The notes below the pieces were generated by a model. It was not told the DNA's origin. It did not search any database and saw nothing but the letters and a program-made list of their open reading frames with translations. 64,000 bases of DNA from Limnohabitans sp. G3-2 (lineage in GTDB: Bacteria > Pseudomonadota > Gammaproteobacteria > Burkholderiales > Burkholderiaceae_C), in assembly GCF_002778275.1 (NCBI RefSeq), contig NZ_NESG01000006.1, positions 62,001 to 126,000 of the forward strand, given 5' to 3'. This document shows, in pieces, positions 3,341 through 54,264 of the stretch (position 1 is its first letter; every line of letters starts with the position of its first letter). A program made the translations under genes and the position numbers.

Positions 3341-3435
3341 GTGGGAGCGAGCCCCCGCTCGCGAAGGCCGGCAAGCCACTCGGCCTTTTCAAACCGCACG
3401 GCCAGCAGGCATTCGGCCGCAGGGGCGTCCTCCGA
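3341..3435 (+). repeat. REP-like repeat pair downstream of tsaD
   Basis: Class A element at 3341-3366: head GTGGGA, stem arms GCGAGC/GCTCGC, loop CCCC, tail GAAG. About 42 bp later an inverted class B element (3409-3435): GCATTCGGCCGCAGGGGCG, ending TCCTCC instead of TCCCAC, so its head is decayed. The pair is arranged head-out, like the BIME units of other bacteria. It occupies the non-coding gap before the LivK-type gene. Further copies are at 45245-45514, 51580-51602 and 52324-52606. Confidence 0.85.
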
Positions 3436-3535
3436 CAAAAGCCTTTTGGCTCACGCGTCAAATACCGGCTCACACAGGGCAGTTACACTGCGCCCGCTTG
3501 TGCATTTACCCGTCTGATGAGGTTCTGTTTTCAAT

Positions 3536-35203: not shown

Positions 35204-35325
35204 GCCAGACTCCTGTGATGACGGACCCAGCCCAAGATGGGTGCTGTGCGAGCCTCGCATCTTGTGCGCAGGGCGGCTGGCTTTGTGTCACCGATCTGAC
35301 TGCGGGCGGCGTGGCCCCGACCTGG

Positions 35326-35359
35326 CTTGGCTTGGCTTGGCTTGGCTTGGCTTGGCTTG
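35326..35359. repeat. CTTGG pentanucleotide microsatellite
   Basis: Six perfect tandem CTTGG units (35326-35355) plus an imperfect seventh (CTTGA). It lies 123 bp upstream of the cyclase operon start codon and 12 bp after the stop of the DMT transporter gene. Non-coding on both strands. Slipped-strand changes here could shift promoter spacing of the downstream minus-strand operon. Confidence 0.85.
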
Positions 35360-42382: not shown

Positions 42383-42770
42383 CTGGGGGCCTTGTAGGCA
42401 CGGGGTCCAAAGTGACAGGGATCACACCAGGACCCATTGGCTGAGCCCACGGGGTCCATGCTACCTTGGGACGGCACCGATGCCCCGGCTGGGGCTTGTC
42501 CATCGCGCACAAAAGGGTGACTTTGGGGAAAGCCATCCCCCATGACCTTGCCCCCAAACCCCGTGCCCAAAGCTGTGGATAAGTCCTTGAACAAGCCGGC
42601 CAAGGCGCATGCCTGTTGGGCTGGCGGTGAGTGCCTAAAAAAGCAGCAGTTGCAGGGTTCGCTTCAGGCTCGACCCATGCGCCTGCAAGCGCTTGATTTG
42701 CGGCTATTCTTGTTGCTTTACGCGCGATTTCCAAGCTTGGTTTCCTGTCAGCTGCCTTGACCATTCCCGC
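42383..42770. other. Gene-free 388-bp region between a lipoprotein hydrolase and recC
   Basis: No convincing coding sequence. A short plus-strand frame (42542-42760) has no family features. The only recognisable site is TGTGGATAA at 42574-42582, a perfect match to the DnaA box (TTATCCACA on the other strand). It must contain the divergent promoters of the hydrolase and recC genes, but none stands out. The CCTAAAAAA stretch at 42636 is not followed by a terminator. Confidence 0.5.
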
Positions 42771-45700
42771 ATGACCTCCTCCTTGATCGCTCCCGGCTTC
42801 ATTGCCCTGCACAGCCACCGCTCCGAGGTGCTGGCCGATACCCTCACGGGCTGGCTGCGCACGCACCCTTTGCTGCCGCTCGAGAGCGAAGTGGTGCTGG
42901 TGCAGAGCAACGGCATGGCCGAGTGGATCAAGATCGAGCTGGCGCGTCAGGGGGGGGTGTGCGCCGCCACGCGGGTGGAGCTGCCCTCGCGCTTTTTGTG
43001 GCGCACTTACCGGCAGGTGCTGGGCGCGCACAACGTGCCGCCCGACTCGCCGCTTGACAAACTGCCCATGACCTGGCGGCTGATGGCCTTGCTGCCGGGG
43101 TGTTTGGCAGACCCGGTGTTCCAACCCGTGGCGGGATTCTTGAGAGGCGACGAGCCCGACCGCCTGCTGCAACTGGCCAGCCGACTGGCCGATCTGTTTG
43201 ACCAATACCAGATTTACCGCCCCGACTGGCTGCAAGACTGGGCCGCTGGGCGCCATGTGCTGCGCAAAGCCGCGGGCCAAGATGCGTTGGGTGAAGACCA
43301 ACTTTGGCAGGCCGAGCTGTGGCGGCGCGTGCTCGCCACGCTCGACGAGACCCAGCGCCAGGCCACCCGTCCCGCCCTGCATGCGCGGGCACTGGCGCAC
43401 CTGCAGTCGGGCCAGCCCCTGGCCAGCGCTGTGGCGCGGCGCGTGTCGGTGTTCGGCATGAGCCACATGCCGGGGCAGCTGCTCGAGATGCTGGCGGCGC
43501 TGGCCGCGCACAGCCAGGTGCTGCTGGCCGTGCCCAACCCGTGCCAGTACCACTGGGGCGACATCATCGATGGGCGCGAGTGGCTGCAGGCCGAGCGGCG
43601 ACGTCACGGCTACCGTGGCGAGGCGCTGGCAGGCTTGCCGCTGGCGCAGATGCACCTGCACGCGCCCACGCTCTTGGCGGCATGGGGGCGGCAGGGGCGC
43701 GACTTTATCCGCCAGCTCGACGCCTTTGACGACCTGCAAGCCGCCCAACACATCACGCAGTGGCCACGCCTGGACTTTTTTGACGATGTGCCCGGCGAAG
43801 ACGGCACGCGTTTGCTCGCGCAGCTGCAGCGGCGCATCCGCGACTTGGAGCCGTCGAGCGGTGGCGCCCCAGTCCAGCCTTTGCGCCAGGGCGACGCTTC
43901 GGTCACCTTCGGCGTGGCGCACAGCCCGGTGCGCGAACTCGAAGTGCTGCACGACCAGCTGCTGCAGTGGTTCCACACCCCACTGGGTGATCAGCCTTTG
44001 TCCCCGCGTGACGTGGTGGTCATGGTGCCCGACATCGAGCGCATGGCTGCGGCCATCCGCGCTGTGTTTGGCCAATACAAGCGCAGCGATGCGCGTTTCA
44101 TTCCTTATGACATTGCCGACCTGGGTGCGCAGGCCATCAGTCCACTGATCCAAGCGGTCGAATGGTTGCTGGCCCTGCCGCAGCAGCGCAGCCGCATGAG
44201 CGAGCTGGTCGAGCTGCTCGAAGTGCCTGCGCTCGCGGCCCGCTTTGGTCTGAAAGACGAACACCTGCCCACGCTCACGCGCTGGATGGCGGGCTCGGGC
44301 ATCCGCTGGGGCCTGACGGCCGAGCACCGCGCGGGCCTGGGGCTGGGCGTGTGCGGCGACGACAACTCGGCGCTGTTTGGCGTGCAGCGCATGCTCATGG
44401 GCTATGCCTGCGGGGCCGACCCTGTTGACTCAGAGGGCGCCGCATCGGGCGTGTCGCCTTATGCCGAAGTCGGCAGGCTGGACGCCGAACTGGCGGGGTC
44501 GCTGGCGCACCTGCTGCAGGCCCTGATCGACTGGTGGCAAATCGGCTCCCAAAGCGCCACGCCCGCACAGTGGGCCGAGCGCAGCCGCGCCATGCTGACG
44601 GCGCTGTTCAAGCCGCGCGACGACAACGACCGCCAGGCCCTGGCAGCGCTCGACCAAGCACTGAACGACTGGGTGCGGGCTTGCGACGAAGCGGGTTTCG
44701 TGGATGAAGTGCCGCTGGCCGTGGCCCGATCGGCTTGGCTCGAAGCGTTGAATGCTCCCCGGCTGGAGCAGCGTTTTCGCGCTGGCGGCGTGACGTTTTG
44801 CACGCTGATGCCGATGCGGGCGATCCCGTTCAAGGCGGTGTGTCTGCTGGGCATGAACGACGGCGACTACCCGCGCCGCAGTCCGCGTGCCGACTTTGAC
44901 CTGATGGGCCTGCCGGGCATGGCACGCCCCGGCGACCGCTCGCGCCGCGACGACGACCGGCAGCTCATGCTCGAAGCGCTGCTGTCGGCACGGCAGGTGT
45001 TGTATGTGAGCTGGAGCGGCCGCAGTGTGCGCGACAACAGCGAGCAACCGCCCTCGGTGCTGGTGTCGCAGTTGCGCGACGAGATTGACCTGCTCTGGGG
45101 CCAAGACACGGCCCAAGGCCTGACCACCGTGCACCCGCTGCAACCGTTCAGCCGTGCTTACTTTGAAGAGGGCAGTGGTTTGCAGACCTATGCCAAAGAG
45201 TGGCGGGCGGCGCAGATGGACAGGCTTGCTCAGACAGATCATTTGTGGGAGGCCGCCCCCGCGGCCGAATGTCTCGCAGCATCAGATCCAACAGACATTC
45301 GCGAGCAGGGGCTCGCTCCCACAGAAGATGGCGCTGCGTTTTGGGGTGGGAGGCCGCCCCCGCGGCCGAATGCAGGCGGACCCGATGCGGACATTCGTGC
45401 GCAGAGGCGCGCTCCCACGGGAGATGGCGCTGCGTTTTGGGGTGGGAGGCCGCCCCTGCGGCCGAATGCAGGCGGACCCGATGCGGACATTCGCGCGCAG
45501 GGACTCGCTCCCACAGGGAATTCCGGTTTGTTGCCAGTATGGGAGTCCGCCAACGGCGTACCCGTCATCACCTTGCTGCAACTGGCCCGCCTCCTGCGCA
45601 AACCTGTGGCTGCGTTTTTCCGCGAGCGGCTGCAGGTGCATTTGGAGGACGAGCGCAGCGCGCTGCATGACGAAGAACTGTTTGGTTTAGGGGGGCTGGA

Positions 45701-46538
45701 CTTGTACCAGCTGCTCGACCACGAACTGCAGCACGTGCCTGCGGATTTGAGCGCAGATGAACTGCCCAGCCATGCAGCGCGTGTGGTGCAGCAGCTGCGT
45801 CAGGCCGGCGCTTTGCCGCTGGCCGGTGTGGGCACGCTCGAAGCCCAAAAGCTCACCCACATGTTGCAGACCCAGCTGGCCGCTGCGCTGCGCGAGCGCG
45901 CGGCCTACCCCGAAGCGGGCGAGCGCGTGCTGATCGACCAAGCCTATCCGCCGATGCACCCTCAAGTGGGTTTGCAGGACGCGCTGGGCGGCGTGCTGGC
46001 GGGCGAAGGTGGGCAACTCCTTTTGAGTCTGCGCGCCAACGACGTGGCAGACCTCCAACCCAAAAAACCTTTGGCCAGACCTGAAAAACTCATCGACATC
46101 TGGCTGCAGTCGCTGGCCGCTGCCGCCATGGGGCATTCACTGCACTGCGTGGTGGTGGGCCGCAACGCCGTTGTGCGTGTGCCCCCGCAAGACCCCGATG
46201 CGGCGCGTGCCCAGTTGCAGACCCTGCTGGCCACCTGGGCCGAGGGCATGCGTTGGCCGCTGCCCCTGCCGCCCGGCGTCGCCTTGCAGTGGCTCAAAGA
46301 CCCCCACAACCTCAATGCCTTGGCCGATGCCTACGAAGGCAGCGACTTCAAGAGCGCAGAAAAAGACAAAGACCCGGCCCTGGCCCGCACCTATCCCACG
46401 GTGCAAGACTTGCTGGCCACGGGCGCACTCGAGCGTTTGGCGCAGGCGGTGTATGCGCCCCTCAAGGACTGGGCGGCGCAGGCGCATGTCGAGCTCTTGC
46501 CCGGTGCGCCAGCAGACGATGAAGGGGACGAGGCATGA
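42771..46538 (+). CDS. recC: Exodeoxyribonuclease V gamma subunit, with a REP-derived in-frame insertion
   Basis: 1255 residues; E. coli RecC has about 1120. RecC recognises Chi and splits the duplex for RecB and RecD. The N-terminal inactive helicase-like domains are intact (VVLVQSNGMAEWIKIELAR; SVFGMSHMPGQLLEML), and the GVTFCTLMPMRAIPFKAV and LLGMNDGDYPR segments are family motifs. Residues about 825-915 are unlike any RecC: proline-, glycine- and arginine-rich, three times repeated (GAAFWGGRPP, GGPDADIRA, APTGDGAAFW), and encoded by a 270-bp array of REP-like palindromes. Conserved sequence resumes at VPVITLLQLARLLRKPVAAF. The insertion keeps frame, so the protein may work with a long loop. 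The ATG/stop overlap with recB is 4 bp. Confidence 0.93.
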   Translation: MTSSLIAPGFIALHSHRSEVLADTLTGWLRTHPLLPLESEVVLVQSNGMAEWIKIELARQGGVCAATRVELPSRFLWRTYRQVLGAHNVPPDSPLDKLPMTWRLMALLPGCLADPVFQPVAGFLRGDEPDRLLQLASRLADLFDQYQIYRPDWLQDWAAGRHVLRKAAGQDALGEDQLWQAELWRRVLATLDETQRQATRPALHARALAHLQSGQPLASAVARRVSVFGMSHMPGQLLEMLAALAAHSQVLLAVPNPCQYHWGDIIDGREWLQAERRRHGYRGEALAGLPLAQMHLHAPTLLAAWGRQGRDFIRQLDAFDDLQAAQHITQWPRLDFFDDVPGEDGTRLLAQLQRRIRDLEPSSGGAPVQPLRQGDASVTFGVAHSPVRELEVLHDQLLQWFHTPLGDQPLSPRDVVVMVPDIERMAAAIRAVFGQYKRSDARFIPYDIADLGAQAISPLIQAVEWLLALPQQRSRMSELVELLEVPALAARFGLKDEHLPTLTRWMAGSGIRWGLTAEHRAGLGLGVCGDDNSALFGVQRMLMGYACGADPVDSEGAASGVSPYAEVGRLDAELAGSLAHLLQALIDWWQIGSQSATPAQWAERSRAMLTALFKPRDDNDRQALAALDQALNDWVRACDEAGFVDEVPLAVARSAWLEALNAPRLEQRFRAGGVTFCTLMPMRAIPFKAVCLLGMNDGDYPRRSPRADFDLMGLPGMARPGDRSRRDDDRQLMLEALLSARQVLYVSWSGRSVRDNSEQPPSVLVSQLRDEIDLLWGQDTAQGLTTVHPLQPFSRAYFEEGSGLQTYAKEWRAAQMDRLAQTDHLWEAAPAAECLAASDPTDIREQGLAPTEDGAAFWGGRPPPRPNAGGPDADIRAQRRAPTGDGAAFWGGRPPLRPNAGGPDADIRAQGLAPTGNSGLLPVWESANGVPVITLLQLARLLRKPVAAFFRERLQVHLEDERSALHDEELFGLGGLDLYQLLDHELQHVPADLSADELPSHAARVVQQLRQAGALPLAGVGTLEAQKLTHMLQTQLAAALRERAAYPEAGERVLIDQAYPPMHPQVGLQDALGGVLAGEGGQLLLSLRANDVADLQPKKPLARPEKLIDIWLQSLAAAAMGHSLHCVVVGRNAVVRVPPQDPDAARAQLQTLLATWAEGMRWPLPLPPGVALQWLKDPHNLNALADAYEGSDFKSAEKDKDPALARTYPTVQDLLATGALERLAQAVYAPLKDWAAQAHVELLPGAPADDEGDEA
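45245..45514 (-). repeat. Three tandem REP-like pairs inside recC (270 bp, 90 codons)
   Basis: Pairs start at 45245, 45346 and 45442 (spacing 101 and 96 bp). Each has a class B palindrome on the plus strand (GTGGGA head, stem GGCCGC/GCGGCC, loop CCCC or CCCT, tail GAATG) and, about 40 bp on, an inverted class A palindrome (ends CGCTCCCAC). The first class A copy has a perfect GCGAGC/GCTCGC stem; the second and third are mismatched. The spacer between pairs 1-2 and 2-3 (GATGGCGCTGCGTTTTGG) is identical. The total is a multiple of three and stop-free in the recC frame. Confidence 0.93.
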
Positions 46539-49500
46539 GTACGGCGCACGCGCTCAACCCCCACAGCTTTCCGCTGCGCGGCAGCCACCTGATCGAGGCG
46601 AGCGCCGGGACGGGCAAGACCTGGACGATTGCCGCGCTGTACGTGCGCCTGGTGCTGGGCCATGGCGATGCGGGCAGCGCACCCATGCGGCCCATGCTGC
46701 CGCAAGACGTGCTGGTCATGACCTTCACCCGCGCCGCCACCCGTGAGCTGTCAGACCGCATCCGCGCCCGCCTGACCGAGGCGGCGCAGGTGTTCCGAGG
46801 CATCGCCAAAACGGACGACGACTTTCTGAACCAACTCCAGAGCGAATACGGCGAAGGCGAGCCGCGCGAACAAGCGGCCTATCGGCTGGCACTGGCCGCG
46901 CAGGCCATGGACGACGCGGCCGTTTACACCATCGACGCCTGGTGCCAGCGCATGCTGCGCGAACACGCTTTTGACAGCGGCAGCCTGTTTGAAGAGCAGC
47001 TGGTCGGCGACGAAGCCGCGCTGCGCCTCCTAGCCGTGCAGGACTATTGGCGTCTGCAGCTCTACCCCATGGCCACAGCGCTGGTGGCGCAGGTGCAGCG
47101 CGTCTGGCGCGACGTGCCCGCGCTCGACAAGGACATGCGGGCCCTGATGGCGGTGCCGCTGCCCGACCCCGCACCCGGCACGCTGGCGCAGGCCTTCGGT
47201 GCGGCGCTGGCCGAGCGCGATGCGCAGCTGCCAGCGCTCAAGCAAGGCTGGGTTGAAAAGGCCGACCACTTGCTGGGCTGGATCGAGGGGCAGCTGGCCC
47301 CGAAAAAACACGGCTGGAATGGCACTCTTTTGCAGCTTGGCCGATCTCAGAAATGGCTGGAATCACTGAAGACATGGGCGCAAAGTGATGGTGATTTCAA
47401 AGCGCTGAAAGATGCGATGGGCAAAGGCTGGGACCGTTTCACGCCAGAAGGTCTTCTGGCGTGCCGGAAAAATGGCGATGAGGTGGCGTGGCCTCCAGAA
47501 AGCCCGGCCTATGCGCAACTTCTGGAAGGACTTCAGGCCTTGCCCGAACCCGCACAAGCCGCCCGCCTGCACGCCCGCACGCATGTGCTGCAGCGCCTGG
47601 CCGAGCTGAAGAAACGCAGTGGTCTGTTCGGCTTTGCCGACATGCTGCAGCGCCTCGATGTGGCGCTGGCCGATCCGGACTCGGGCGAGCGACTGGCGCA
47701 GCGCCTGCGCGAGCAGTTCCCGGTGGCCATGATCGACGAGTTCCAGGACACCTCGCCGCTGCAGTTCCGCATTTTTGACCGCATCTACCGCACAGCCGAG
47801 AACCGGCAAGACGCCGCCTTGTTGTTGATCGGTGACCCCAAGCAATCGATCTACGGTTTTCGCGGTGCCGACATCCACAGCTACATGGCCGCGCGCCGCG
47901 CCACCGCAGGCCGTCACCATGTGCTGGGCACCAATTACCGATCCACCCAAGCGGTGGTGGATGTGGTCAACCGCTGGTTCCAAATCTCTGACGATGCTTT
48001 TGCTTACCGTCAGGGCGTCGACGACCCGCTGCCTTTCCAGCCCGTCAAGGCCAAGGGCCGCAGCGAAGTGTTCACGACGCGTGGGGGTGCGGTCAAAGCC
48101 ATGACCTTGGTGCACGACGTCACACTGCGCAGCCAGCGCGATGCGCAGACCCATTTGTCGGCCCTGTGTGCCGAGCAGATCGTGGCCTGGCTGGGTGACC
48201 CGCAGGCCCGCTTTGTGGATCCGAAAAAGGGCGATCAGCCGCTGCAGCCCAAAGACATTGCCGTGCTGGTGCGCACAGGCAAAGAGGCCGCTGCTGTGCG
48301 CGACGCCTTGCGCGTGCGGGGTGTGGCTTCGGTGTACCTGTCGGACCGCGACTCGGTGTTTGCCAGCGACGAAGCGCAGGACCTTTGCCTGTGGCTGCGC
48401 GGCGTGGCCGAGCCGCAAGACATGCGCCGCGTGCGCGCCGCTTTGGGCACGCGCACGGTGGGCCTGTCGCTGGCCGAGTTGCACGAACTGGCCACACACG
48501 ATGAAGTGCTGGACCTGCGTTCCGAGCAAATGCGCGAGCTGCGCGGGGTTTGGCAAGGGCAGGGCGTTTTGGCCATGCTGCGCCAGTCGCTGCATGTGTT
48601 GCACCTGGCCGGACGCTGGCGCGGCCAGAGCGACGGCGAGCGCCGCCTGACCAATGTGCTGCACCTGGCCGAGCTGCTGCAAACCGCCAGCAGCCAGCAG
48701 GGTGGCGAGCAGGCCCTGATCCGCTGGCTGGCCCAGCAGATCGAGGAGGTCAAGGCGGGCGGTGCAGGCGACAGCGAAGACCAGACTGTGCGGCTGGAGA
48801 GCGACGAAGACCTGGTCAAGGTCATCACCATCCATGCCAGCAAAGGCTTGGAGTACCCGGTGGTGTGCCTGCCCTTTGCGCACAGCCACCGCATGATGGA
48901 AGCCCACAAAACCCCGGTGTTGCAGCGCGATGACGGCGCGGGCGAGCGGCCTTGGACTTTGGACTTTGACAAGAACGACACAGCGGCGGCCGACCGCGAC
49001 CGACTGCGTGAAGACCTGCGCCTGTGGTACGTGGGGCTCACGCGGGCGCGGCATGCGCTGTGGGTGGGTTGGAGCCCGGTCACGCGGGGCTCGGGCAAAA
49101 GCTGCGTGAACCACGACAGCGCGGCTGGCCATTTGCTGGGTCAGGGCCAGGCATTCGAGGCCGCCGACTGGTTGCCTCAACTGGCAGCCCTTGAAACCGA
49201 TGCGGATGCGCAGCGCTTGTCGGTGCAACGGGTGAGCGCGAGCGAAGCGGTGCCGATCACGGTCTGGCAGCGCGCCCCCCGCACCACCGGACTGCGCGAT
49301 GCGCTGAGCTGCACCGCCCGCATTGACAAGTCGTGGACCATTGCGAGTTTCTCGCGCCTGACGCGTGACCTGTCTTCGCAAGCCCTCGCGCCCATGAGCA
49401 TGCACCTGGCCGCGCCGCGCCCGGCCGATGACGAACCGCCCGAAGACGCACAGACGCTGCCCACGCCTGCAGCCCCTGCGGGCTCGGTGGCCCCTTGGCA

Positions 49501-50206
49501 CGGCTTTGCCAAAGGCCCGAGCGCAGGCAACTTTTTGCACGACCAGCTCGAATGGTTGGCGGCCGATGGTTTTGTGCTCGACGCATCCAAGGCCGAGCGC
49601 CTGAAAAAACGCTGCGACAACGCAGGCTACAAAACCCAGGCCGACGACGTGGTGCAATGGCTCACCCGAGTGGTGGCGCAACCCTTGCGCGGGCCAGCTC
49701 GCCCGCTCAATGCGCTGGGCGCCTTGCTGCCCGAGATGGAGTTCTGGCTGCCTGCCGAGCGGCTGCACGCCCGCGAGGTGGACGCCCTGTGCCAGCAGTA
49801 CCTTTTGCCCGGTGTGAGCCGCCCGCAACTGCCCGACGCGCAACTGCACGGCATGCTGATGGGCTTTGCCGACTTGGTGTTCGAGCACGGCGGGCGCTAC
49901 TGGGTGCTCGACTACAAATCCAACCACTTGGGTGACGATGACGCGGCTTACACCGCGCAGGCGCTCGATGCCGCCATGGCCCATCACCGCTACGAGGTGC
50001 AGGCCGCGATTTACATGCTGGCGCTGCACCGCCTGCTGAGCGCTCGCCTGGGTGAGGCCTACGATCCGGCGCAGCAACTGGGCGGCGCGGTGTACCTGTT
50101 CTTGCGCGGCATCGACGGGCCGGCAGGCGGCTGCTGCACCTTGCCTGCGCCGCTCGAATTGCTCGACGGCCTAGACGCCATGCTCCATGCCGAGGTGAAA
50201 GCATGA
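46535..50206 (+). CDS. recB: Exodeoxyribonuclease V beta subunit
   Basis: 1223 residues. UvrD-type helicase: Walker A ASAGTGKT at 22-29, motif Ia VMTFTRAATRELSDRI, Walker B AMIDEFQDTSPLQFRIF near 398, motif III LLIGDPKQSIYGFRGAD, motif V VITIHASKGLEYPVVCLPF and motif VI YVGLTRARHALW. A C-terminal nuclease domain has the catalytic D-Y-K motif in YWVLDYKSNHLGDD at about 1122, which also identifies it as RecB rather than another UvrD relative. It is the 3'-5' motor and only nuclease of RecBCD. ATGA overlaps with recC and recD couple all three genes. Confidence 0.96.
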   Translation: MSTAHALNPHSFPLRGSHLIEASAGTGKTWTIAALYVRLVLGHGDAGSAPMRPMLPQDVLVMTFTRAATRELSDRIRARLTEAAQVFRGIAKTDDDFLNQLQSEYGEGEPREQAAYRLALAAQAMDDAAVYTIDAWCQRMLREHAFDSGSLFEEQLVGDEAALRLLAVQDYWRLQLYPMATALVAQVQRVWRDVPALDKDMRALMAVPLPDPAPGTLAQAFGAALAERDAQLPALKQGWVEKADHLLGWIEGQLAPKKHGWNGTLLQLGRSQKWLESLKTWAQSDGDFKALKDAMGKGWDRFTPEGLLACRKNGDEVAWPPESPAYAQLLEGLQALPEPAQAARLHARTHVLQRLAELKKRSGLFGFADMLQRLDVALADPDSGERLAQRLREQFPVAMIDEFQDTSPLQFRIFDRIYRTAENRQDAALLLIGDPKQSIYGFRGADIHSYMAARRATAGRHHVLGTNYRSTQAVVDVVNRWFQISDDAFAYRQGVDDPLPFQPVKAKGRSEVFTTRGGAVKAMTLVHDVTLRSQRDAQTHLSALCAEQIVAWLGDPQARFVDPKKGDQPLQPKDIAVLVRTGKEAAAVRDALRVRGVASVYLSDRDSVFASDEAQDLCLWLRGVAEPQDMRRVRAALGTRTVGLSLAELHELATHDEVLDLRSEQMRELRGVWQGQGVLAMLRQSLHVLHLAGRWRGQSDGERRLTNVLHLAELLQTASSQQGGEQALIRWLAQQIEEVKAGGAGDSEDQTVRLESDEDLVKVITIHASKGLEYPVVCLPFAHSHRMMEAHKTPVLQRDDGAGERPWTLDFDKNDTAAADRDRLREDLRLWYVGLTRARHALWVGWSPVTRGSGKSCVNHDSAAGHLLGQGQAFEAADWLPQLAALETDADAQRLSVQRVSASEAVPITVWQRAPRTTGLRDALSCTARIDKSWTIASFSRLTRDLSSQALAPMSMHLAAPRPADDEPPEDAQTLPTPAAPAGSVAPWHGFAKGPSAGNFLHDQLEWLAADGFVLDASKAERLKKRCDNAGYKTQADDVVQWLTRVVAQPLRGPARPLNALGALLPEMEFWLPAERLHAREVDALCQQYLLPGVSRPQLPDAQLHGMLMGFADLVFEHGGRYWVLDYKSNHLGDDDAAYTAQALDAAMAHHRYEVQAAIYMLALHRLLSARLGEAYDPAQQLGGAVYLFLRGIDGPAGGCCTLPAPLELLDGLDAMLHAEVKA

Positions 50207-52323
50207 CTTTCAAAAAGCCCCTCAGAAGGGTGTCTGTGTCGAGCGCCCAAATGGATTGGCTGAGCGACTTGCCGGCCCAAGGCCTGAGCGCCGCGCAAAC
50301 GCTGCAGTGGCTGCGGCTGTGGACCGAGCAAGGTCTGCTGCGCCACATCGACAGTGCCCTCGCAGCCCAACTGCTGCGGCTCGATGGCCAGGCCAGCCCC
50401 GCGCTGCTGGTGGCGGCAGCCATGCTCGCGCAAATGGAAGGGCGGGGTCACACCTGCCTGCCTTTGGCAGACCTGTGCACACCGCCTGCAGCGCTGTTGG
50501 GCTGGCCTGCCGTGGCGGTGGAGGGGCCGCAAGGCTTGCAAGCGCTTTGGGCGCAGCTGCCCGCCACGCTGGCCGACTGGCAAGCCGCTTTGCAAAGCAG
50601 TTCAGCCCGTGCCTGTTCGCGTCTGAGCGATGCACCCGACCAAGGTCAACCGCTGGTGCTGGGGGGCAGCGTTGATGCACCGCTCTTGTACCTGCGCCGC
50701 TATGCAGGCTACGAGCAGCGTGTGGGCCGGGGTCTGTTGCAACGGGCCAGCGAACCATCGCCTGTGCCCGAGGCAGTGGCCCGCCGCTGGCTCGACCGGT
50801 TCTTTGTGCCCAAGGCCGACACACCCGTTGACACCGACTGGCAAAAAGTGGCCTGCGCGGTGGCGCTGCGCGCGCGCCTGTCGGTCATCACAGGCGGGCC
50901 GGGCACGGGCAAGACCTACACTGCTGCACGCTTGCTGGCCTTGCTGCTGGCGCTGCACGAAGGCGACAGCCCGCTGCGTGTGGCGCTGGCTGCGCCCACG
51001 GGCAAGGCGGCGGCGCGGCTCAAGCAATCCATCGACAACGCACTGACCGGCCTGCAAGAGCAGGTGCCCGAGGGCAGCGGTCTGGACTTGAACACGCTGA
51101 TCGCCCGCATGGGCCCGGCGCGCACGCTGCATTCGCTGCTCGGTGCGCGGCCCGACACGCGCCAGTTCAGACACCACACGGCCAACCCGCTCGATGTGGA
51201 TGTGCTGATCGTGGACGAGGCCTCGATGGTGCATCTGGAGATGATGGACGCGTTGCTGCAGGCCCTGCCCCCCACGGCTCGGCTGGTGCTGCTGGGCGAC
51301 AAGGACCAGCTGGCCTCGGTGGAAGCGGGCGCCGTGCTGGGCGACCTGTGTCGCGACGCCGCCGCAGGCCGCTACAGCGCGGACACGGCGCAGTTTGTGC
51401 AGAGCGTTGCCGGGCAGACCTTGCCAGCCCCATACCTGTGTGCGGGCGCTGCGCCCTTGCTCGCGCAACAAACCGTGATGCTGCGCCAAAGCCGCCGCTT
51501 CAAAGGCGCCATCGGCCAGCTCGCCCTGGCGGTGAATGGCGGGAACGCTTTGGCCGCCCGAGCGGCTTTCCTGAACCCTGTGGGAGCGAGCCCCCGCTCG
51601 CGCATGTCTGCCGAAGCCACGCCCCTTCATGAACCCAGCGCCCTTCTCGCCCTGCAACCCTCCAGCCCCCAAGTCGTCTGCGCTTTGGCCTTGAGCACCT
51701 CGGGCCAACCGTCTTACGCCCATTACCTGCGCCTCACGCAAGACGGCCCCGCAGGGCCGGGCACTGAAACGCACGCCGCTTGGGTGCGCAGCGTGCTCCA
51801 AGCTTTCGAGCGTTTTCGCATTTTGTGTGCCGTCCACCAGGGCGACTGGGGCACCCAGGGGCTCAATGCCGCCGTACAAAAAGCGCTGACCGACAAGGGC
51901 CTGCTCAAAGTCTCGGGCGAATGGTTCGCCGGGCGGCCGGTCATGGTCACGCGCAACGATGCGCAGTTGGGCGTGTTCAACGGCGACGTGGGCGTGGTGT
52001 TGCCCCATGTCGAGGGCGCGCTCAAGGTCTGGTTCCTCGACGGTGAGGCGCTGCGCTCTGTCAGCGTGATGCGCTTGGCGCAGGTTGAAACGGCTTTTGT
52101 CATGACCGTGCACAAAAGCCAGGGCTCGGAGTTCGAGCACACCGCGCTGGTGTTGCCGCCTGGCGGCGCAGAGGTGCTCAGCCGTGAGCTGGTCTACACG
52201 GGCATCACCCGGGCACGTGAACAGTTCACCCTGATCGAAGCCGAAGCGGGCTTGCTCGAAGCGGCCATCGACCGCCCAAACGTGCGGGCCAGCGGCTTGG
52301 CGCAGTGGTGGACGCTGAACTGA
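50203..52323 (+). CDS. recD: Exodeoxyribonuclease V alpha subunit
   Basis: 706 residues (E. coli RecD about 608). Superfamily 1B 5'-3' helicase: Walker A GGPGTGKTYTAARLL at about 230, VLIVDEASMVHLEMMDALL (Walker B), LVLLGDKDQLASVEAGAVLG, and the C-terminal TVHKSQGSEFEHT and VYTGITRAREQF motifs. A single REP-like palindrome is embedded at residues about 460-467 (NPVGASPRSRMSAEA), in a region between helicase motifs. The gene ends 1 bp before a 283-bp REP array, and the operon has no intrinsic terminator. Confidence 0.95.
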   Translation: MTFKKPLRRVSVSSAQMDWLSDLPAQGLSAAQTLQWLRLWTEQGLLRHIDSALAAQLLRLDGQASPALLVAAAMLAQMEGRGHTCLPLADLCTPPAALLGWPAVAVEGPQGLQALWAQLPATLADWQAALQSSSARACSRLSDAPDQGQPLVLGGSVDAPLLYLRRYAGYEQRVGRGLLQRASEPSPVPEAVARRWLDRFFVPKADTPVDTDWQKVACAVALRARLSVITGGPGTGKTYTAARLLALLLALHEGDSPLRVALAAPTGKAAARLKQSIDNALTGLQEQVPEGSGLDLNTLIARMGPARTLHSLLGARPDTRQFRHHTANPLDVDVLIVDEASMVHLEMMDALLQALPPTARLVLLGDKDQLASVEAGAVLGDLCRDAAAGRYSADTAQFVQSVAGQTLPAPYLCAGAAPLLAQQTVMLRQSRRFKGAIGQLALAVNGGNALAARAAFLNPVGASPRSRMSAEATPLHEPSALLALQPSSPQVVCALALSTSGQPSYAHYLRLTQDGPAGPGTETHAAWVRSVLQAFERFRILCAVHQGDWGTQGLNAAVQKALTDKGLLKVSGEWFAGRPVMVTRNDAQLGVFNGDVGVVLPHVEGALKVWFLDGEALRSVSVMRLAQVETAFVMTVHKSQGSEFEHTALVLPPGGAEVLSRELVYTGITRAREQFTLIEAEAGLLEAAIDRPNVRASGLAQWWTLN
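51580..51602 (+). repeat. Single class A REP-like palindrome inside recD
   Basis: Head GTGGGA, stem GCGAGC/GCTCGC with loop CCCC, then GC. It matches the element downstream of tsaD base for base over its 22-bp core. Only this element, not a pair, is present, and it is translated in frame as VGASPRSR. Nucleotides on both sides look like normal recD coding sequence. Confidence 0.85.
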
Positions 52324-52606
52324 GTGCACGCCAGCCCCTGCTCGCGAAGACTTGCATTCCCACACCACGCATTCGGCCGCAGGGGCGGCCTCCCACATCA
52401 GGCATTCAGCCGCAGGGGCTGCCTCCCTCATCAAAGAGGGCTTGGCCTGCCGTGGGAGCGAGCCCCTGCTCGCGAAGACTTGCATTCCCACACCACACAT
52501 TCGGCCGCAGGGGCGGCCCCCCACATCAGGCATTCGGCCGCAGGGGCGGCCTCCTACATCAAAGAGGGCTTGGCCTGCCGTGGGAGCGAGCCCCTGCTCG
52601 CGAAGG
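52324..52606 (+). repeat. REP-like array after recD, 128-bp units
   Basis: Two full 128-bp direct repeats (52324-52451, 52452-52579) and a partial third (52580-52606). Each unit carries one class A palindrome (stem GCGAGC/GCTCGC, loop CCCT) and two inverted class B palindromes (stem GGCCGC/GCGGCC), joined by spacers such as ATCAAAGAGGGCTTGGCCTG. In unit 1 the class A head has decayed (GTGCACGCC). The non-coding stretch 52324-52636 holds nothing else; the opposing small gene ends at 52637. Confidence 0.92.
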
Positions 52607-52636
52607 CTTGCACACACCAAGGCTCTTTGGGGTCCT

Positions 52637-52909
52637 CTAACTGGCAAACCCTTCGCAAGCCCCCGCATTGGTCTTGCCCCGACATTCGCGCAGCAGGCGC
52701 TTGTCGCGTTCGGCCTTGCTCTCGCCCGTGCTGGGGTTGGCGGGTGGTTTGGGGGCTTTGCTTGGTTTCGGTTTTTTGGCCTTGGCCGGTGTGTCGGCTG
52801 CAGAGACAGCGGTGAAGTTGTCCGCCGCATGGCTGGTGGGCGCTGTGGCCAGCCAGACAAGCCCCCAACCCACGCTGGCGAGCGCGGTCCTCCAATGCCG
52901 TGTGTTCAT
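52637..52909 (-). CDS. Small exported lysine/proline-rich protein with a cysteine C-terminus
   Basis: 90 residues. Signal peptide to about residue 28 (ASVGWGLVWLATAPTSHA), then a Lys/Pro/Ala-rich linker (AKAKKPKPSKAPKPPANP) and a short conserved-looking C-terminus, RLLRECRGKTNAGACEGFAS, with two cysteines. The start is set by AGGGAGA ahead of ATG 52909. Similar short periplasmic proteins occur in Burkholderiales without known function. Monocistronic, ends next to the REP array. Confidence 0.72.
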   Translation of the reverse strand: MNTRHWRTALASVGWGLVWLATAPTSHAADNFTAVSAADTPAKAKKPKPSKAPKPPANPSTGESKAERDKRLLRECRGKTNAGACEGFAS

Positions 52910-53010
52910 GGCCGTCTCCCTGATTGTTTTTAGGCTGTTCATGATAGGTATTTGCCGTGCTTGTGCAAGGGGTGACACTTGCAGGGCAGATCAGCCCTTA
53001 CGATGAGGGC

Positions 53011-54216
53011 ATGAACCCCAACACTGCTCCTTTCATGCGCCAGGCCGTCATGGACCTGGAAGAGTCCCGCATCCGCGAAGTGGCCAACGCGGGCATGGGC
53101 CGCCCCGATGTGCTGGCCTTCTGGTTTGGCGAGTCCGACGAGGTCACGCCCGATACCGTGCGCCAGGCGGCCATCGACTCGCTGCAAAAAGGCGAGACCT
53201 TTTATTCGCACAACCTGGGCCTGCCCGAGTTGCGCCAAGCCGTGTCCGACTACATGTCATCCTTGCACGGACCCGTTGGCGTAGAGCGTTTGGCCATCAC
53301 CTCGGGCGGCGTGAACGCCTTGATGCTGGCCGCGCAAGCCTTGATCGATGCGGGCGACGAAGTGGTCGCCGTCACGCCTGTCTGGCCCAACCTCACGGCG
53401 CAGGCATTGGTGATGGGCGCCCATTTGAAATGTGTGTCGCTGCGTCCGGTGGGTGGTCAGTGGAAGTTGGACATGGTGGCGCTCAAAGCCGCGATCACGC
53501 CCGCCACCCGCATGCTGATCGTGAACTCGCCCAACAACCCCACCGGCTGGACACTCAGCCGCGCCGAGCAGGCCGAGATCTTGGCGCATTGCCGCAGCAC
53601 CGGCACCTGGGTGCTGGCCGACGAGGTGTATGAGCGCCTGTATTACGAAACCGACACGGCCAATGGCTGCGCGCCGTCTTTTCTGGATGTGGCCGAGCCC
53701 GACGACCGCTTGGTCGTGGTGCACAGCTTTTCGAAAAGCTTTTTGATGACCGGCTGGCGACTGGGCTGGCTGGTCATGCCGGCCGCCATGACGCCCCACA
53801 TGGGCAAATTGATCGAATTCAACACCTCGTGCGCTTCGGTGTTCACCCAAAAGGCGGGTGTGGTGGCCTTGCAAAACACCGCCGACATCACGCCGCGCGT
53901 GGTGGCGCACCTCAAAGCCTGCCGCGACACCCTGGTGCCGCTGCTGCAAGCCGTGCCTGGCGTTCAATTGGCGCCCGCCAAGGGCGGCATGTACGCATTT
54001 TTCAAGCTCGAAGGGCACCCGGACGCTGTGCAGACGGCCAAGCGGCTGGTGGCCGAAGCGGGTCTGGGGCTGGCCCCCGGCGAAGCCTTTGCCCCCGAAG
54101 CAGCGGGTTGGCTGCGCTGGTGTTTTGCCTCCAAAGACTTGTCCAGGTTGACCGAAGGTGTGGAGCGTCTCCAAAGCTGGTTGGCTAAAAATCAATGGGG
54201 ATCTGACTCCCATTAA
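53011..54216 (+). CDS. Class I/II PLP-dependent aminotransferase
   Basis: 401 residues. Fold type I aminotransferase: SPNNPTGWTLSRAE (substrate loop), VLADEVYERLYY with the pyridine-N-binding aspartate, and the Schiff-base lysine in HSFSKSFLMTGWRLGWLVM. Closest in layout to aspartate/aromatic aminotransferase-type proteins; amino donor unknown. The ATG is preceded by GATGAGGG. The last residues (GSDSH) are encoded by the first copy of a tandem repeat, which also supplies the stop codon; without the repeat the protein would end differently. Confidence 0.9.
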   Translation: MNPNTAPFMRQAVMDLEESRIREVANAGMGRPDVLAFWFGESDEVTPDTVRQAAIDSLQKGETFYSHNLGLPELRQAVSDYMSSLHGPVGVERLAITSGGVNALMLAAQALIDAGDEVVAVTPVWPNLTAQALVMGAHLKCVSLRPVGGQWKLDMVALKAAITPATRMLIVNSPNNPTGWTLSRAEQAEILAHCRSTGTWVLADEVYERLYYETDTANGCAPSFLDVAEPDDRLVVVHSFSKSFLMTGWRLGWLVMPAAMTPHMGKLIEFNTSCASVFTQKAGVVALQNTADITPRVVAHLKACRDTLVPLLQAVPGVQLAPAKGGMYAFFKLEGHPDAVQTAKRLVAEAGLGLAPGEAFAPEAAGWLRWCFASKDLSRLTEGVERLQSWLAKNQWGSDSH

Positions 54217-54264
54217 TTGGGATCTGACCCCAATTAATGATTGGGATCTGACCCCAATTAATGA
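54196..54264 (+). repeat. Tandem GATCTGACCCC repeat at the aminotransferase 3' end
   Basis: Two exact 24-bp copies (54217-54240 and 54241-54264) containing TTGGGATCTGACCCCAATTA, preceded by a diverged copy (54196-54216) that overlaps the aminotransferase stop. Each copy is itself palindromic (TTGGG ... CCCAA). Similar GGGTCAGATCCC repeats are scattered in many betaproteobacterial genomes, often near transposases; none is here. Confidence 0.88.

What the first reader, a model, noticed from the sequence alone, without database searches (positions are those of the whole stretch)
45245..45514. REP-like palindromes have expanded inside the recC coding sequence, adding exactly 90 codons
Three tandem REP-type pairs fill 270 bp of recC, stop-free and in frame. 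The same elements are otherwise intergenic in this window. REPs are normally excluded from genes. A selfish or structural DNA element has become a 90-residue Pro/Gly/Arg-rich repeat in the Chi-recognition subunit of RecBCD. It may be a tolerated loop, or the hairpins may influence recC translation.
Basis: partly seen in the sequence, partly recalled or inferred. Interest (0 to 1): 0.75.

Follow-up and report, generated by a model that had tools for sequence, protein, structure and literature searches.

The report
Palindromic repeats inside RecC's linker
A freshwater bacterium has three copies of a mobile hairpin repeat spliced in frame into a floppy linker of its DNA-repair protein RecC, and related species carry other, unrelated hairpin repeats at the same spot, usually a kind that is multiplied in their own genome.

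Summary
Confirmed and extended. Three REP doublets (REPINs) lie in frame in recC, 45245-45514, of a Limnohabitans-group genome. The REP core occurs 386 times genome-wide; a reversed control, 0. Units 2 and 3 look like a 96-bp tandem duplication; one relative has two units, strain T6-20 one. The insert fills the linker before RecC's nuclease-like domain, which AlphaFold2 models without confidence (pLDDT<50).

The comparison is the larger finding. In 17 of 21 related recCBD operons the same linker carries one of five palindrome families, usually one multiplied in that genome; on the RecC tree the site changed family at least 10 times. recD (8 of 21) and mutL (7 of 30 clearly) show the pattern too; recB (0 of 21) and IF2 (0 of 30) do not. 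Of 268 REP cores examined in this genome, 10 lie inside genes I accept as real: recC, recD, mutL. One relative has REPs in putA, so repair genes are not exclusive.

Best explanation: mobile REPs surviving in disordered linkers, with turnover by the resident family. In-frame REPs in recBCD and other repair genes were reported in 2013 (PMC3733652), so this is a rich new case of a known kind.

The parts
42771..46538 (+). recC (exodeoxyribonuclease V gamma), 1255 aa, uninterrupted frame
45207..45581 (+). RecC interdomain linker, 125 codons, between '...TYAKEWR' and 'LARLLRKPVAAFFR'; corresponds to E. coli RecC about 811-831
   Evidence: E. coli domain limits from PMC1185551
45245..45322 (+). REPIN unit 1 (REP 45245-45271 on -, REP 45296-45322 on +)
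45346..45418 (+). REPIN unit 2 (REP 45346-45372 on -, 45392-45418 on +)
45442..45514 (+). REPIN unit 3 (REP 45442-45468 on -, 45488-45514 on +); with unit 2 it repeats at a 96-bp period (32 codons)
45294..45485 (+). two 96-bp direct copies (45294-45389 and 45390-45485), 93% identical
46535..50206 (+). recB; no family core in recB of 21 of 21 operons
50203..52323 (+). recD
51580..51606 (-). single REP of the same family inside recD, read in frame as VGASPRSRM
52370..52606 (.). cluster of six REP cores downstream of the recD stop (extragenic)
3341..3436 (.). two further REP cores, not inside a predicted gene

Best explanation
The 270 bp are three REPINs (opposed pairs of GTGGGAG-tagged REPs) of the genome's own abundant REP family, which entered the hypervariable, probably disordered linker between RecC's helicase-like part and its nuclease-like domain and are translated as a spacer. 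Shown: the family, its genome-wide copy number, the open frame, the place in the protein, one-, two- and three-unit versions in related species, different palindrome families at the same linker in other species, and the same pattern in the recD and mutL linkers. Inferred: REPs mobilised by a tyrosine transposase (RAYT) or spread by recombination land widely; copies inside genes survive only where a stop-free, in-frame insert is harmless, which is why they sit in a few linkers. Unit 3 arose by a 96-bp (32-codon) tandem duplication of unit 2. Over time the linker element decays or is replaced by the family that is currently multiplying in that genome, by re-insertion or by conversion between REPs that share a scaffold.
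For: 386 cores, control 0. Units 2 and 3 93% identical at a 96-bp period; two units in G036, one in T6-20. Motif scan of 21 recCBD operons: recC 17 with a family core, all at recC nucleotides 2431-2717, i.e. the linker; recD 8, all at 1374-1449; recB 0. Copy numbers of the recC family in the 11 genomes where I counted it: A 386 G000, 140 G036, 328 T6-20; C 133 G027, 30 G023, 2 G014; B 10 G048, 3 G032; D 32 G013, 40 G052; E 97 G059, so 10 or more copies in 9 of 11. recC and recD carry the same family in 7 of the 8 operons with a core in both. Family changes on the tree: at least 10 counting only rows with an assigned family, 15 if 'none' is a state. The linker aligns to E. coli RecC 811-831, inside the linker given as 784-827 by PMC1185551; AlphaFold2 gives residues 821-918 pLDDT<50 and 76-98 for most of the domain that follows.
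Against: putative mobility is not shown: the two Y1_Tnp genes of the genome have no REP of this family within about 1.5 kb. Tolerance alone does not obviously explain why repair genes are hit: by a crude disorder scale recC, recD and mutL hold 39 of 2123 interior disordered residues on the contig, IF2 185, yet IF2 has no core in 30 of 30 genomes. In G014 the two C-family cores found genome-wide are both in recC, and in G032 the recC family has only 3 copies, so the match to the resident family is not universal. Low pLDDT is expected for a segment with few aligned relatives.
Confidence: 0.75

Rival explanations
1. Repair tuning: inserts in RecC, RecD and MutL linkers change repair or recombination rate and are favoured, as suggested by the 2013 authors (mutator or hyper-recombining states). 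In-frame change of unit number would be a length dial.
For: In G000 all 10 cores inside genes that I accept are in recC, recD and mutL; in G027 the only interior C cores in 30 stretches are in mutL, besides recC and recD. The 2013 paper reports the same leaning in other bacteria. Unit number varies 1-2-3.
Against: putA of G059 holds two E cores, and it is not a repair gene. E. coli MutL with a linker 40% shorter shows no mutator phenotype (PMC6902014, passages). The frames in which REPs are read differ between genes. No function was measured.
Confidence: 0.13
2. Hairpin function: the mRNA hairpins slow translation at a domain boundary or affect mRNA stability, and are kept for that.
For: The element sits at a domain boundary; several unrelated palindromes occur there; RNA fold z -3.3. 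In G014 a near-perfect palindrome persists although only two C cores were found genome-wide, both in recC.
Against: Many linkers keep only decayed palindromes (inverted-repeat scores 16-20 in G053, G010, G007, G018, G026); two near relatives have none (L077, L078); other genera have none.
Confidence: 0.07
3. Assembly error or a broken gene.
For: Short tandem repeats are often misassembled; one relative's contig (G022/L073) ends inside its linker.
Against: The units differ from each other; the frame is intact; separate assemblies have related one- and two-unit versions.
Confidence: 0.03

Closest known systems
GTAG- and CGTC-tagged REPs inside genes (PMC3733652, 2013)
   Same: REPs in frame inside genes, many of them for DNA synthesis and repair, recBCD proteins named; different REPs at about the same site in recB of two Xanthomonas species (abstract, sections 15 and 17 part 1 read)
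   Different: Here recC, recD and mutL in one bacterial group, five families at one linker, and a match to each genome's resident family. The paper's Figure 7 and Additional file 3 could not be seen, so whether recC was among its cases is unknown
REPINs (PMC3116915, 2011)
   Same: opposed REP doublets forming a long hairpin, hundreds of copies, mostly extragenic (passages read)
   Different: inside a coding sequence and in tandem; RAYT neighbour not found here
Rickettsial palindromic elements
   Same: palindromes in frame inside genes (as told in PMC3733652, passage)
   Different: different sequence family and host; details beyond that passage are recalled
RecC family (TIGR01450)
   Same: whole-length match over the cut-off
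   Different: linker about 100 residues longer than in E. coli RecC

Membership tests
REP / REPIN | short imperfect palindrome in many copies per genome | tested here: met
   386 cores, control 0
REP / REPIN | opposed doublets with a short spacer | tested here: met
   three pairs here; opposed neighbours recur in the genome list
REP / REPIN | mostly extragenic | tested here: met
   71 of 88 on contig C22 outside genes, 3 partial, 14 inside ORFs of which I accept 10
REP / REPIN | family REP next to a RAYT gene | tested here: not met
   two Y1_Tnp genes, 0 family cores in the 3.3 kb loci around them; wider flanks not searched. Hence 'REP doublet' is claimed, RAYT mobility is only inferred
GTAG superfamily of REPs | GTAG-type tag at one end | tested here: inconclusive
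   family A reads GTGGGAG, families C and E GTAGGAG or similar; no formal classification made
RecC | curated model over cut-off and full-length frame | tested here: met
   TIGR01450 924.5 bits, 1255-aa frame
RecC | Chi recognition and RecBCD activity | not testable with these tools
   needs an assay

The most novel reading that the evidence does not exclude
The linkers of a few DNA-repair proteins (RecC, RecD, MutL) are standing docking sites that each lineage's resident REP family repeatedly overwrites, and the resulting change of linker length or mRNA structure tunes recombination and mismatch repair, so that a selfish repeat and the host's repair machinery evolve together.
Probability: 0.2. 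Interest if true: 0.85.

Novelty: new member of a known kind. Interest (0 to 1): 0.6.

Why it matters
It was noted in 2013 that REPs inside genes favour replication and repair genes, without an explanation. This group of related species offers many independent states at the same sites in recC, recD and mutL, with element-free relatives as controls, so chance, tolerance and selection can be told apart by comparison and by simple deletion tests. It also warns that such inserts in RecC are real coding sequence, not annotation errors.

Tried and rejected
Rejected as real intragenic REPs: four cores in an ABC-transporter ORF (L062), because the transporter starts after them and the upstream half has no Pfam match; one AMP-binding gene site (L063), a 4-mismatch chance match; on contig C22, two 4-mismatch matches (219776, 299796), one at a gene start (137644) and one in what I judge a false 5' extension (221909). 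These are my judgements; the gene finder was a simple codon-usage script. Repair-only targeting was rejected because of putA. Conserved-hairpin function was weakened by decayed copies. Rfam found nothing in 42500-53000. A first linker read for L077 (118 residues) was a false match to recB and was replaced; in the tree that false row was used, and repeats it without it. The last lines failed while saving a file; its printed results stand. Family labels of linkers in the tree were given by eye; the motif scan supports them in 17 of 21 operons but finds no core in G026, which I had labelled C. Literature searches that gave no earlier recC case: (listings; open-licence library only).

Full report
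What is there. The window lies in contig C22 of a 3.25-Mb genome in 25 contigs; named near relatives are Limnohabitans species and related Comamonadaceae assemblies. recC, recB and recD follow each other. Within recC, six copies of a 27-base REP core form three opposed doublets between 45245 and 45514. The core pattern occurs 386 times in the genome at up to 3 mismatches and never when read backwards.

How it was built. Units 2 and 3 repeat at a 96-base period with 93% identity, so they look like a tandem duplication of 32 codons. A relative, G036, has two units, and T6-20 one. The spacer of G036's second unit resembles those of units 2 and 3 in the window, and its first that of unit 1; this is read from the alignment, not tested.

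Where it sits. RecC aligns to E. coli RecC up to residue 810 and again from 832; the window's residues 816-932 lie between. PMC1185551 gives the E. coli linker as 784 and domain 3 as starting at 828 (passages). AlphaFold2, on 38 sequences of the C-terminal half, gives residues 821-918 pLDDT below 50 and no secondary structure but one short helix near its end, while most of the following domain scores 76-98. Low values are expected for poorly aligned inserts, so this is supportive only.

Relatives at the same site. RecC was found in 56 of 60 genomes of the same genus group; I could read the linker in 49 loci, not in all 56. Besides the window's family A, four other palindrome families appear: B (GATCGCCACGCT...), C (GGAGCGGTC...), D (ATCGCGGCGAGGG...) and E (GTAGGAGCCAGCCC...). 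A motif scan of 21 whole recCBD operons found a family core in recC in 17, always in the linker; in recD in 8, always at one place; in recB in 0. Coding inverted repeats with scores of 30 or more in these operons were found in 7 of 21 genomes, all in the recC linker. G034, G026, G054 and G043 had no core in recC. Other organisms (L083-L152) have linkers of 28-59 codons; I saw no such element in them by eye.

Match to the resident family. In the 11 genomes where the recC family was counted it had 10 or more copies in 9: A 386, 140 and 328 (G000, G036, T6-20), C 133 and 30 (G027, G023), B 10 (G048), D 32 and 40 (G013, G052), E 97 (G059). Other families were usually rare in those genomes, but not always: G048 has 11 D against 10 B. 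In the 8 operons with a core in both genes, recC and recD agree in 7; G032 has B and A.

Turnover. On a RecC tree of 33 rows built without the linker, family state needs at least 15 changes if 'none' is a state, and 10 if only the 20 rows with an assigned family count. The labels are still more clustered than shuffled ones (5 of 200 shuffles as low), so inheritance plays a part. Recombination between species could add changes. In recD the elements of G000, G013 and G052 start after the same bases although their stems differ, which fits conversion of an old insert as well as new insertion.

Other genes. On the whole contig C22 (324 predicted genes, 91% coding) 71 of 88 cores lie outside genes, 3 overlap an edge and 14 lie inside ORFs; I accept 10: recC 6, recD 1, mutL 3. 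In 28 further stretches chosen around listed cores, none of 180 is accepted (four in L062 rejected as explained). In G027, 131 family-C cores in 30 stretches include three inside a gene, mutL, besides those in recC and recD. In G059, 64 family-E cores in 39 stretches include three inside genes: one in recC, two in putA. mutL linkers were read in 30 of 30 loci: clear cores (2 mismatches or fewer) in 7 (A in G000, G036, G034, G021; C in G027, G023, G028), weak ones in 5 more, which may be chance. The N-terminal region of IF2, about 475-540 codons, has none in 30 of 30.

Reading. Location in linkers, decayed copies and the lack of a conserved reading frame favour tolerance. The leaning to repair genes is striking but rests on few genes, two of them in one operon, and putA breaks it. 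PMC3733652 had reported in-frame REPs in many repair genes, named recBCD proteins, and noted different REPs at about the same recB site in two Xanthomonas species. I therefore file this as a new member of a known kind, with an unusually informative comparison. Whether it affects RecBCD is unknown.

Noticed in passing
L178 1620-3653 (C22:147620-149653, -): mutL of the window's genome carries three REP cores in its linker.
   Followed up: yes
window 51580-51606: A single REP inside recD, read in frame; relatives have A-, C- or D-type elements at the same place.
   Followed up: yes
L308 1985-6193: putA of G059 has an insert of more than 100 residues holding two E-family cores in tandem.
   Followed up: partly
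L161 (G014), recC linker: The two C-family cores found in the G014 genome are both in recC: a surviving copy after loss elsewhere, or a transfer.
   Followed up: partly
window 35323-35359: TGGCT repeated 7.4 times without error; possible slippage site.
   Followed up: no
window 54190-54264: Short tandem repeats with GGGATCTGACCCCAATTAAT units at the end of an aminotransferase-like ORF.
   Followed up: no
L001 1171-1866 and L002 1363-1920 (-): Two Y1-transposase-domain genes without a family-A REP within about 1.5 kb.
   Followed up: partly
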